Assembly: GCF_007066085.1 (NCBI RefSeq)
Contig: NZ_CP041405.1
Location: forward strand, 682,001 to 746,000
Direction of reading: 5' to 3'
From: Paenibacillus thiaminolyticus
GTDB taxonomy: Bacteria; Bacillota; Bacilli; Paenibacillales; Paenibacillaceae
Length of the DNA: 64,000 bases
Both the position numbers and the translations under genes were made by a program. Positions 17,753 through 19,577 of this stretch are shown here, in pieces (the stretch's first letter is position 1; each line of letters begins with the position of its first letter). A model generated the notes under the pieces. It was given only the letters and a program-made list of their open reading frames with translations. It made no database searches and had not been told where the DNA came from.

Positions 17753-18049
17753 GATGTGCATCCTCCTTTGTCTTTCTCTCTTCTCTTCATGAACATGAAC
17801 CTGACTCCTGTTCATTGCAGAATGCAAATCAACTCCTTCACGAAATAATAGCTGCAGTAACAGCAATCCATGGCGCCGTATATGATAAGCAGGACGAGCA
17901 TGTCCTGCTCGTTCCTATAGATTACAGCGTGATTGGCTTATATTGGAACGGACTTCTTCATCTTACCACGGCCCCCTGCCGAGAGAACAGCATCAAAAAG
18001 AATTGCCAAAACCTAATTAATATGATAAGTTGGGAGTAATTTCAAGAAT
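17753..18049. other. intergenic region between GNAT and the erm leaders
   Basis: Holds the upstream region of the divergent GNAT gene and, presumably, the promoter of the erm transcript. At 17888-17915 two mutually exclusive hairpins can form (AGCAGGAC/GTCCTGCT, or ACGAGCA/TGCTCGT). A TATGAT at about 18021 is the best -10-like sequence, but its -35 partner is not convincing. No gene supported. Confidence 0.35.
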
Positions 18050-18059
18050 GGAGGGTTAC

Positions 18060-18068
18060 GTGTGGTAG
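18060..18068 (+). CDS. two-codon leader ORF (Met-Trp-stop), copy 1
   Basis: GTG TGG TAG with GGAGG at spacing five. It is conserved with copy 2 at 18420-18428 in sequence, spacing and downstream RNA fold, although its start codon differs (GTG versus ATG), which argues for selection on translation rather than only on the RNA sequence. Its product would be fMet-Trp. Confidence 0.5.
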   Translation: MW

Positions 18069-18336
18069 ATAATAACCGAGTTTTCTTTGTGCATCTAATT
18101 GGATAATGCAAAGACTCTGCCTGCGGCGGAGGACTCGGGATTGGTCTGCCCTTTTGAAAGGTAACCCCAATCGTAATCTCATACAGGATGAACAGGAGCG
18201 TTGATCGGACAGGTGAGCCTTGATCTCCCTGCGGTTAGATCGCCGATCTATGCACATCCGATGATTCGACTGCGCACCAACCGTCAAGGAGGCATCGCTT
18301 CCTTGCGGCTTCTTCCCTTGTCCTCCTCAGGATACT

Positions 18337-18368
18337 AACACAGGCAGATGTCCCGCCTGTGTTTTTTT
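18337..18368 (+). terminator. intrinsic terminator inside the erm leader
   Basis: AACACAGGC pairs with GCCTGTGTT around a nine-base loop, followed by an uninterrupted T-tract. It sits between leader unit 1 and unit 2, 350 bases before erm, so erm expression from an upstream promoter needs read-through. Confidence 0.85.
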
Positions 18369-18407
18369 GCGTTTCGCGAGTCATGTATTGGCCCGCCATT
18401 TTGAGGG

Positions 18408-18722
18408 AAGGAGGTCTACATGTGGTAGATCAGGTCAACTGAGTTCAACCTTTGCGCACACTACCGATTTTTGCCAAAGGCTCTGCCGGCGTGCAGAGGA
18501 CTCAGGACTGGTCTGCCCATTTTCCGAGGTACGCTTCCACGTTGCGAAGCCTTCCGATCCGCTTATCCGGATGGATTCATCCGGGAACGGGCGATCATGC
18601 GGCATGCCCTTTTGTCGGCAGGGCGTCTTATCGCTTGCCCATCCCTAGCTGAGCCCTCTTCGATTGCACGCATACGGCAGCAGCCGAACGATTGATTTTT
18701 GCGGGTAACGGAGGGACATCGA
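18408..18722 (+). promoter_or_regulatory. erm leader unit 2: mini-ORF and three-way junction RNA
   Basis: AAGGAGG at 18408-18414 then ATG TGG TAG at 18420-18428. The junction is rebuilt: P1 CTGAGT (18439-18444) with ACTCAG (18500-18505), P2 CCTTTG (18449-18454) with CAAAGG (18475-18480), P3 CTCTGC (18481-18486) with GCAGAG (18493-18498). Relative to unit 1, P1 has a C-G to T-A compensatory change. A TGGTCTGCCC block follows P1 in both units. Weaker hairpins with short T-runs (18590-18615, 18665-18700) precede the erm ribosome binding site and could act as a second terminator or sequester it. Confidence 0.6.
18420..18428 (+). CDS. two-codon leader ORF (Met-Trp-stop), copy 2
   Basis: ATG TGG TAG with AAGGAGG at spacing five, a near-optimal initiation region. 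See copy 1; the TGTGGTAGAT core is identical in both. Confidence 0.5.
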   Translation: MW

Positions 18723-19577
18723 ATGACTAGAAATAGACAAGATAAGCGGCATGCCGGCAGACGGGGTACGGGACCCGATGCCAATTATTGCGGGAAGCAC
18801 CTGCTTCTGAACGAGCGGATCGTTCGTGAAATGATGGATAAGGCCAAGATTCGTCCGGCGGACACCGTGGTCGATCTCGGAGCCGGAACCGGTGCGTTCA
18901 CCTTCGTCCTGGCCGAGAAGGCCGGCAATGTGATCGCGATTGAGAACGATCCGGAATTTGCGAATATGCTGCGGCGCAAGTCGAAGGAGCATGACAATAT
19001 TACGATCGTGGAAAGGGATATCCGGAAGGCTTATCTGCCGAAGCAGCCCTTTTGCGTTGTGTCCAATATTCCGTTCTCCATTACGACGCCGATTCTCAAC
19101 ATGCTGATGGATGCGCCTGCGGCCTCCTTCCAGCGAGCGGCGCTCATTCTGGATTACGGCGCGGCCAAGGGCTTGACCGCCCGGCTCATACGGCATCCTC
19201 GCCTGCTGATATGGCGAACGGGGTTCGATATCGAACTCGTTAAGTTGATCCCGAGGCATCATTTCGCTCCTCCGCCAAGCGTGGATACCGCGATGGTCCT
19301 AATTCGGCGAAAAGCGCGGCCTCTCGTCGCGCCCAAGGACAGCCATACGTTCGCGGCATTGGCCGAGTACGCGCTGAAGCGGCCCGATCTTCCGCTGCAT
19401 GCGGCCTTGCAAGGCATATTTACGCCGCCGCAGATGAAGCATCTGGTCAGATGCCTCGGCATAAGCCGCGATATCCCGGCCTGCGCGTTGAATGAGCGCC
19501 AATGGGGCATCGTGTTCCAGACGATGCTGGAACGAGTCGAGCCGTACCGCTGGCCCCGGCGGCAGAGGAAGAAGTAG
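18723..19577 (+). CDS. erm: 23S rRNA (adenine-N6)-methyltransferase, Erm family
   Basis: 284 residues. SAM motif I DLGAGTG at 51-57, acidic motif II in AIENDPEF, and the adenine-binding motif SNIPFS at 114-119 with the NIPF form of Erm rather than KsgA NLPY. The C-terminal KRPDLPLHAALQGIFTPPQMKHL and NERQWGIVFQTM segments and the basic tail match the ErmD/Erm(34) branch of Bacillus. It methylates A2058 (E. coli numbering) of 23S rRNA and confers macrolide-lincosamide-streptogramin B resistance. Start at 18723 is set by ACGGAGGG; six to eight codons further upstream are unsupported. Expression is probably controlled by the two leader units. Confidence 0.88.
   Translation: MTRNRQDKRHAGRRGTGPDANYCGKHLLLNERIVREMMDKAKIRPADTVVDLGAGTGAFTFVLAEKAGNVIAIENDPEFANMLRRKSKEHDNITIVERDIRKAYLPKQPFCVVSNIPFSITTPILNMLMDAPAASFQRAALILDYGAAKGLTARLIRHPRLLIWRTGFDIELVKLIPRHHFAPPPSVDTAMVLIRRKARPLVAPKDSHTFAALAEYALKRPDLPLHAALQGIFTPPQMKHLVRCLGISRDIPACALNERQWGIVFQTMLERVEPYRWPRRQRKK

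What the first reader, a model, noticed from the sequence alone, without database searches (positions are those of the whole stretch)
18050..18722. Two tandem structured leaders with Met-Trp-stop mini-ORFs upstream of erm
Seen: two units 360 bases apart each have GGAGG, five bases, RTG TGG TAG, then a three-way junction (P1, P2, P3) and a shared TGGTCTGCCC block. P1 is CCGAGT/ACTCGG in unit 1 and CTGAGT/ACTCAG in unit 2, a compensatory change; P2 and P3 differ in sequence but keep pairing. Unit 1 ends in a strong terminator, so erm needs read-through. Known: erm genes are often controlled by drug-stalled ribosomes on leader peptides (e.g. ErmC, ErmD), with leaders of several residues. Inference: a two-codon ORF as sensor, used twice in series, would be a distinct attenuation design. 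This is my best candidate for an undescribed system.
Basis: partly seen in the sequence, partly recalled or inferred. Interest (0 to 1): 0.88.

Follow-up and report, generated by a model that had tools for sequence, protein, structure and literature searches.

The report
Tandem antibiotic-sensing leaders before erm
An erythromycin-resistance gene in a bacterium sits behind two copies in a row of a folded RNA switch that many related bacteria carry in front of several kinds of macrolide-resistance gene; the tiny two-codon gene first noticed in it is most likely a misread of a longer, known type of drug-sensing leader peptide.

Summary
The two units are real: SD, RTG-TGG-TAG, P1/P2/P3 and a GTCTGCC block, kept in 4 of 19 own-genus genomes. 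They belong to a widespread RNA element: a core covariance model hits 133 of 197 family and 105 of 398 class genomes, with strong covariation. Of 189 distinct copies examined, 175 lie before hflX, erm, mph, ABC-F or rlmA genes; 149 carry an SD-led uORF with the macrolide-stalling R/K-X-R/K motif, control mean 26.

"Met-Trp-stop" is probably the wrong frame. In overlapping start pairs the second start opens R/K-X-R/K in 57 of 82, the first in 4 of 82. In the window that frame gives MVDNNRVFFVHLIG* and MVDQVN*, homologous to sister leaders such as MVDQFIRVRTLRG*; both lost R-X-R, unit 2 by CGA->TGA.

Folding supports ribosome-controlled antitermination by unit 1; unit 2 may act on the erm SD, with mixed support. 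The kind of mechanism is known (rli80/hflXr, ermK, vmlR); the shared scaffold and the doubled, motif-less version are the new part. Nothing was tested experimentally.

The parts
18021..18026 (+). possible -10 (TATGAT) of the leader promoter
   Evidence: sequence inspection only; no good -35; the scan does not report it
18050..18054 (+). unit 1 Shine-Dalgarno GGAGG
   Evidence: invariant in 4 genomes
18062..18106 (+). uORF1, GTG GTA GAT AAT AAC CGA GTT ... TAA = MVDNNRVFFVHLIG*
   Evidence: homologous frame in relatives
18064..18070 (+). unit 1 P0 5' strand GGTAGAT, pairs with 18144-18150
   Evidence: invariant, so no covariation
18076..18138 (+). unit 1 three-way junction: P1 18076-18081/18133-18138, P2 18084-18114, P3 18115-18131
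18144..18150 (+). unit 1 conserved GTCTGCC block, P0 3' strand
18315..18326 (+). antiterminator target CCCTTGTCCTCC (pairs with the P3/P1 3' strands in the induced fold)
18338..18368 (+). intrinsic terminator ACACAGGCAGATGTCCCGCCTGTGTTTTTTT; 5' arm CAGGCAGA (18341-18348) is complementary to P3 UCUGCCUG (18116-18123)
18410..18414 (+). unit 2 Shine-Dalgarno GGAGG
18422..18442 (+). uORF2, GTG GTA GAT CAG GTC AAC TGA = MVDQVN*; stop where sister leaders have the first Arg of R-V-R
   Evidence: codon comparison
18439..18505 (+). unit 2 three-way junction: P1 18439-18444/18500-18505, P2 18449-18480, P3 18481-18498
18511..18517 (+). unit 2 conserved GTCTGCC block, pairs with 18424-18430
18655..18680 (+). 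unit 2 target CCTCTTCGATTGCACGCATACGGCAG, complementary to unit 2 P3
18710..18715 (+). erm Shine-Dalgarno GGAGGG, fully paired in the uninduced fold
18723..19577 (+). erm, 23S rRNA adenine N6-methyltransferase (284 aa)
   Evidence: NF000499.2, 214.5 bits against cut-off 212; PF00398

Best explanation
Two copies in series of a Bacilli-wide ribosome-sensing attenuator control erm. Each copy has a strong SD, a short uORF starting at GTG GTA GAT (M-V-D...), and an RNA fold in which the start of the uORF pairs with GTCTGCC and the following codons form the P1 5' strand. When ribosomes pass freely, P0/P1/P3 form (OFF). When an antibiotic holds a ribosome on the uORF, P0/P1 cannot form and the P3/P1' strands pair with a downstream target instead. 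For unit 1 that target includes the 5' arm of the terminator at 18338-18368, so RNA polymerase reads through. For unit 2 it is a segment just before the erm SD, so the pairing may expose the SD (translation attenuation, perhaps on a decayed terminator). Shown: homology, covariation, gene context, complementarity. Inferred: drug stalling, switching, division of labour. In this erm lineage both uORFs have lost the R-X-R stalling motif; I think they still sense early-elongation stalls, but which drug is unknown.
For: Homology: R1 hits in 17 of 19 genus genomes; R2 in 133 of 197 family and 105 of 398 class genomes at E<=0.001. Covariation on 100 distinct copies: 14 of 17 pairs changed on both sides, score 0.301 against 0.141 shuffled (0/500) and at most 0.108 when slid. 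Context: 175 of 189 distinct copies lie before hflX, erm, mph, ABC-F or rlmA genes (types checked on examples). R/K-X-R/K uORF in 149 of 189, control mean 26; the motif overlaps the P1 5' strand (its first basic codon begins at -5 in 86 and at +1 in 53 of 149). Terminator-like hairpin in 144 of 181 against 19 of 181 shuffled. P3 5' arm and loop complementary to the terminator 5' arm at p<=0.05 in 69 of 137 and p<=0.01 in 56 of 137. Window type: with the ribosome footprint masked and the RNA cut at the decision point, 19-21 expected pairs form between P3/P1' and the target in 8 of 8 unit-genome cases; shuffled targets give means of 1-7.
Against: No expression data. The window uORFs lack R-X-R, so macrolide stalling on them is unproven. 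The equilibrium fold of the complete unit 1 keeps the terminator even with a masked ribosome, so the switch would have to be co-transcriptional. Two of eight unmasked truncated folds already form much of the ON pairing (G130 unit 1: 15.3 pairs, also 0.79; G000 unit 2: 11.3). In full-length unit 2 folds the masked ribosome brings the P3-target pairing in only 2 of 4 genomes (0.75, 0.54, 0.03, 0.00), and the erm SD is then unpaired with probability only 0.32, 0.20, 0.01 and 0.00; its partner in the free fold differs between genomes. P0 never varies in the eight units. The second P1 pair is broken in 37 of 100 copies. Complementarity of P3 to the terminator is weak for ABC-F (3 of 14) and rlmA (3 of 10) copies.
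Confidence: 0.75

Rival explanations
1. The Met-Trp-stop ORF is itself the sensor: drugs that block initiation or the first peptide bonds (lincosamides, pleuromutilins) trap a ribosome on two codons, and the longer frame is a relic.
For: In this genome unit 2 has ATG at the MW start, a better start codon than the overlapping GTG. The longer frames have lost R-X-R. vmlR works with a three-codon uORF (PMC9226507, passages and two sections read). In folds of unit 1, masking only 18050-18072 already gives the ON pairing.
Against: MW-stop is also present, out of frame, in relatives with an intact R-X-R peptide (L064, L076, L113, L018, L128, L134). In mph relatives the same start reads MWHIISD* or MWQIISD* beside MAHYFRLRSLR* or MANYFRLRTLR*. 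Spacing 5 is never used by the 149 motif-bearing uORFs. TGG TAG is held by the P0 pairing anyway.
Confidence: 0.12
2. Both units are decayed: without R-X-R they no longer respond to drugs, and erm is expressed at a low fixed read-through level or is silent.
For: Both uORFs lost the motif; unit 2 was cut by CGA->TGA.
Against: The P1 partner differs in compensated fashion along with the TGA. The units, their spacing, the terminator loop (AGATGTC) and the unit 2 target are kept in four species, and the ON complementarity is kept in all four for both units. Erythromycin stalling on ErmDL does not depend critically on RLR (PMC8298421, passages).
Confidence: 0.16
3. It is a ligand-binding riboswitch, and the uORF is incidental.
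For: Conserved three-way junction; tandem copies, as in some riboswitches (recalled).
Against: R/K-X-R/K uORFs overlap the P1 strand in most copies that have them (149 of 189 have one). For Listeria hflXr, a strain expressing ErmC lost lincomycin induction, which the authors took to point to stalled ribosomes and not to RNA binding (PMC6310831, passages).
Confidence: 0.03

Closest known systems
Listeria rli80 / hflXr attenuator (PMC6310831)
   Same: uORF overlapping the anti-antiterminator, antiterminator, terminator; hflX downstream; RLR peptide; induced by lincomycin
   Different: one unit, hflX, 14-aa RLR peptide. Homology of rli80 RNA to this scaffold was not tested (no Listeria record among the 37 named stretches).
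uORFC-6-1 motif (PMC8632094)
   Same: mostly Bacillales, primarily upstream of hflX, covarying structure downstream of the uORF start, Arg-Leu-Arg peptide; probably part of this same RNA family
   Different: Described with 51 representatives; the main text has no word starting with 'erm', 'methyltransferase' or 'Paenibacillus'. Its consensus figure is not held, so identity is not proven.
erm(K)/erm(D) leader of Bacillus licheniformis (PMC4335068, PMC8298421)
   Same: transcriptional attenuation before an erm gene. L109 (before erm) encodes MTHSMRLRFPTLNR*, one residue from the Erm(K) leader MTHSMRLRFPTLNQ printed in the text of PMC4335068 (its table prints MTHA...)
   Different: RLR intact; I did not test the ermK RNA itself. 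PMC4335068 noted no discernible homology between the mef(E)/mel and erm(K) 5' regions apart from the peptide.
B. subtilis vmlR leader (PMC9226507)
   Same: very short uORF at the base of an anti-antiterminator; transcription plus translation attenuation
   Different: one unit, tripeptide MIN, ABC-F gene; sequence homology not tested
B. subtilis tlrB (yxjB) leader (PMC6851288)
   Same: RYR leader peptide, terminator and SD sequestration before a 23S rRNA methyltransferase
   Different: the text does not use the word anti-antiterminator; sequence homology not tested

Membership tests
Bacilli RxR-uORF attenuator RNA (family defined here by R2) | P1-P2-P3 junction with CTCTGCC and GTCTGCC | tested here: met
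   window units score 76.9 (unit 2) and 67.7 bits (unit 1), but they are among the 27 rows R2 was built from
Bacilli RxR-uORF attenuator RNA (family defined here by R2) | R/K-X-R/K in the uORF | tested here: not met
   MVDNNRVFFVHLIG*, MVDQVN*; 149 of 189 copies meet it, the eight window-type units do not
Bacilli RxR-uORF attenuator RNA (family defined here by R2) | terminator with 5' arm complementary to P3 | tested here: met
   unit 1 only; unit 2 has a complementary target but no good terminator was seen. In the family 69 of 137 at p<=0.05, so the feature is common, not universal
uORFC-6-1 | match to the published consensus structure | not testable with these tools
   figure and supplement not available; no Rfam match that fits
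uORFC-6-1 | upstream of hflX (primarily) | tested here: not met
   window: erm; relatives: 79 of 189 before hflX, one of them in this genome (L039)
uORFC-6-1 | Arg-Leu-Arg in the peptide | tested here: not met
   window uORFs lack it
ErmC-type translational attenuator | erm SD sequestered until the leader ribosome stalls | tested here: inconclusive
   SD unpaired 0.0 in the free fold in 4 of 4; with masked ribosome 0.32, 0.20, 0.01, 0.00
Transcription attenuator with drug-stalled ribosome | terminator and competing antiterminator | tested here: met
   in silico only, truncated RNA; not in the equilibrium fold of the complete unit
Transcription attenuator with drug-stalled ribosome | drug-dependent read-through | not testable with these tools
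   needs term-seq or a reporter
Two-codon (Met-Trp) sensor | the MW-stop frame is the conserved, motif-bearing frame | tested here: not met
   motif in the second frame 57 of 82, first frame 4 of 82

The most novel reading that the evidence does not exclude
One homologous RNA scaffold, spread over Bacilli (and found in two named records whose genera, Clostridium and Anaerosolibacter, I recall as Clostridia), is a common switch of the macrolide/lincosamide resistome: hflX, erm, mph, Msr-type ABC-F, rlmA, mef- and lmrB-like pumps. It uses a built-in antiterminator (P3 5' arm and loop against the terminator 5' arm) and exchangeable stalling peptides written over the P1 strand. The window shows it doubled, with peptides that no longer carry the stalling motif, which suggests a different or broader trigger.
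Probability: 0.65. Interest if true: 0.78.

Novelty: new variant of a known kind. Interest (0 to 1): 0.62.

Why it matters
In the papers I saw, leader regions of macrolide-resistance genes are compared mainly through their peptides; PMC4335068 notes no discernible homology between the mef(E)/mel and erm(K) leaders apart from the peptide. Here a single covarying RNA with one antitermination logic links many resistance genes, so induction of intrinsic macrolide resistance across Bacilli could be studied as one system. The doubled, motif-less erm leader makes a clear question testable: can such a scaffold sense stalled ribosomes without an R-X-R peptide, and do two switches in series sharpen or combine control of transcription and translation?

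Tried and rejected
Rfam: nothing at gathering score in the window; microRNA and Zeta-pan matches at E 0.12-3.7 in 17900-18800; two CRISPR-repeat matches below cut-off, both in one (L019) of eight relatives' loci. Rejected as chance or unrelated.

Direct pairing of the GTCTGCC block with the terminator arm GGCAGAT was my first idea. Masked folds gave it probability 0 and mean 0.0 in four genomes; the P3 5' arm takes the arm instead. P0 as proof of selection on TGG-TAG: rejected, P0 does not vary. The equilibrium fold of the finished unit 1 keeps the terminator in both states.

The first uORF extraction picked wrong frames for some copies (M*, MW*); redone.

Biases: A6 rows were cut to begin at a P1 strand chosen by complementarity, and A7/A8 were fitted to R2, so pair counts lean towards the structure. 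R2 includes the window units. Of the matches listed I examined a part, mostly the better-scoring ones, and some loci overlap. 191 aligned matches (103, 88) were reduced to 189 distinct. Gene labels rest on blastp to ten reference proteins; five of the erm labels and five of the eight others were checked by NCBIfam. Labels are at family level: mph, rlmA and the pumps do not reach the cut-offs of the named models. The overlapping-start count is of pairs, three copies counting twice; in the four first-frame cases (L164, L146, L175, L200) the motif is in the first frame. The RxR control shuffled the sequence after the start region, 20 times; the terminator control was one mononucleotide shuffle per copy, the arm control 200.

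Literature: nine searches of one open library. In their listings and the passages I opened (PMC8116656 and PMC11264731 too) I found no description of the shared scaffold before erm, mph and rlmA, nor of tandem units of it before erm; subscription papers are not covered.

Full report
What is there. The 673 nt before erm (18723-19577; Erm model NF000499.2, 214.5 bits, cut-off 212) hold two units 360 nt apart. Each has GGAGG, five bases, RTG TGG TAG, a P1/P2/P3 junction and GTCTGCC; unit 1 is followed by a terminator at 18338-18368. The arrangement recurs in three other genomes of the genus: the exact two-ended pattern hits 4 of 197 family genomes (4 of 19 of the genus), twice each. A GNAT-family gene lies divergent upstream, with similar ORFs in the relatives.

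RNA structure. P0 is invariant in the eight units, so conservation of TGG TAG cannot be taken as selection on a peptide.

A family. A model from the eight units (R1) hits 17 of 19 genus genomes at E<=1. A core model from 27 copies (R2) hits 133 of 197 family genomes in 14 of 19 genera and 105 of 398 class genomes in 51 of 146 genera, at E<=0.001. On 100 distinct copies 14 of 17 pairs change on both sides, score 0.301 against 0.141 shuffled and at most 0.108 slid; P1 cells are 89% paired, and its second pair is broken in 37 of 100. A pattern scan of named genomes gave 37 stretches (two from one contig), among them Paenibacillus alvei, P. dendritiformis, Brevibacillus, Shouchella clausii, Bacillus haynesii and Clostridium sp. 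CX1; all 37 also match R2.

Downstream genes. Of 189 distinct copies: hflX 79, erm 39, mph 31, ABC-F 15, rlmA 11, SDR 5, condensation-like 1, other 8. Types were checked on examples with NCBIfam: Erm, HflX, Msr-type ABC-F and SDR examples pass a curated cut-off, mph and rlmA examples are clear relatives below the cut-offs of the named models. Among the eight others, five were looked at: Mef-like (L167, L205), LmrB-like (L183, L187) and Tet-like (L179) pumps, below the cut-offs of those named pumps. L062's second match (E 0.00046) has no gene behind it and may be false.

The uORF. 149 of 189 copies carry an SD-preceded uORF with R/K-X-R/K; with the sequence after the start region shuffled the mean is 26 of 189, maximum 33. 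In the named set 36 of 37 do. The start lies 6-11 nt after GGAGG, never 5, with 4-11 allowed. The motif overlaps the P1 5' strand: its first basic codon begins at -5 in 86 and at +1 in 53 of 149. Where two starts overlap as RTGTG or TTGTG, the second frame has the motif in 57 of 82 pairs and the first in 4 of 82. Thus many hflX copies read GTG TGA in one frame and peptides such as MIDFIRVRTLRG* in the other, and sister erm copies read MW* in one and MVDQFIRVRTLRG* in the other. The window's Met-Trp-stop is, most likely, this shadow.

The window's own peptides. In the homologous frame unit 1 reads MVDNNRVFFVHLIG* (MVDNNRVFSFCI* and MVDNNRVCI* in relatives) and unit 2 MVDQVN* (MVDQYI*, MVDQSN*). 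Against sister codons GTG GTA GAC CAA TTT ATT CGA GTT CGT, unit 2 has GTG GTA GAT CAG ... Unit 1 is one codon shorter before CGA GTT and lacks the second Arg. A tree of 39 erm leaders puts the four unit 1 copies (99/96) and the four unit 2 copies (100/100) in separate clades, so the doubling predates the four species; unit 2 groups with single-unit sisters at 93/80. Tandem units within 1,000 nt occur in these four loci and one other (L101, also before erm) among the 182 loci, some overlapping, given.

Mechanism. Free folds of unit 1 form P0/P1 and the terminator. With 18050-18078 masked as a ribosome and the RNA cut at the terminator loop, P3 UCUGCCUG pairs with the terminator arm CAGGCAGA at 0.85-1.0 per pair; over the arm the mean is 0.86, 0.80, 0.80 and 0.62 in the four genomes masked, against 0.00, 0.02, 0.79 and 0.17 free (G000, G161, G130, G122), so G130 shows no switch in this test. 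Over four genomes and both units P3/P1' forms 19-21 expected pairs with its target when masked; shuffled targets reach this in 1 of 100 (G000 unit 1) or 0 of 100. Free values are 0-2 in six of eight, but 15.3 (G130 unit 1) and 11.3 (G000 unit 2). In the family the same pairing recurs: 69 of 137 copies with a terminator show P3:5'-arm complementarity at p<=0.05, 56 at p<=0.01; mean -12.0 kcal/mol, -10.5 when arms are swapped between gene classes. The small gap to swapped arms shows a shared motif more than locus-specific matching. I saw no good terminator after unit 2. The erm SD is fully paired in the free fold in 4 of 4 genomes. In full-length masked folds the P3-target pairing reaches 0.75, 0.54, 0.03 and 0.00, and the SD is unpaired at only 0.32, 0.20, 0.01 and 0.00; truncated folds give the P3-target pairing in 4 of 4. 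I therefore propose transcription control by unit 1 (more certain) and translation control by unit 2 (uncertain).

Known and new. Ribosome-mediated attenuation before hflXr (PMC6310831), ermK (as told in PMC4335068), vmlR (PMC9226507) and tlrB (PMC6851288) is established; of these I read passages, and for vmlR two sections as well. uORFC-6-1 (PMC8632094; two sections and passages read) is a covarying leader, mostly in Bacillales and primarily before hflX, with an Arg-Leu-Arg peptide, and is probably the same RNA. New here, within the searches made, are the extension of one scaffold to erm, mph, ABC-F, rlmA and efflux genes, its P3-terminator antitermination, and the doubled motif-less version before this erm. 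Macrolide response of the window uORFs is open: for ErmDL, RLR is needed with telithromycin but much less so with erythromycin (PMC8298421, passages).

Noticed in passing
L021, L032, L108, L198, L202: All five copies labelled as lying before an SDR oxidoreductase encode a six-codon uORF M-I-D-x-S-R-stop (Arg then stop), a different type from R-X-R; the role of this SDR in drug resistance is unknown.
   Followed up: partly
L101 (G104): A second tandem pair of units before an erm gene, in another genus of the family; uORFs MIDCSR* and MINGRLNRPTLNN*.
   Followed up: partly
L072, L073, L076: hflX and erm lie close together, each with its own copy of the leader, the copies 1.7-1.9 kb apart.
   Followed up: no
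L039 (same genome as the window, C1:4964213-4964345): The window's own genome carries a third copy before hflX, with a 21-aa uORF MIDMAAIFRLGRIRLNVCDTN*.
   Followed up: partly
L179: A copy lies before a Tet(A/B/C)-like MFS gene (187.7 bits, cut-off 475), a drug class not expected for an R-X-R leader.
   Followed up: no
L074: A copy with uORF MINFSRLRKQCK* lies before a protein that looks condensation-domain-like to me and has no NCBIfam match at E<=1e-12.
   Followed up: no
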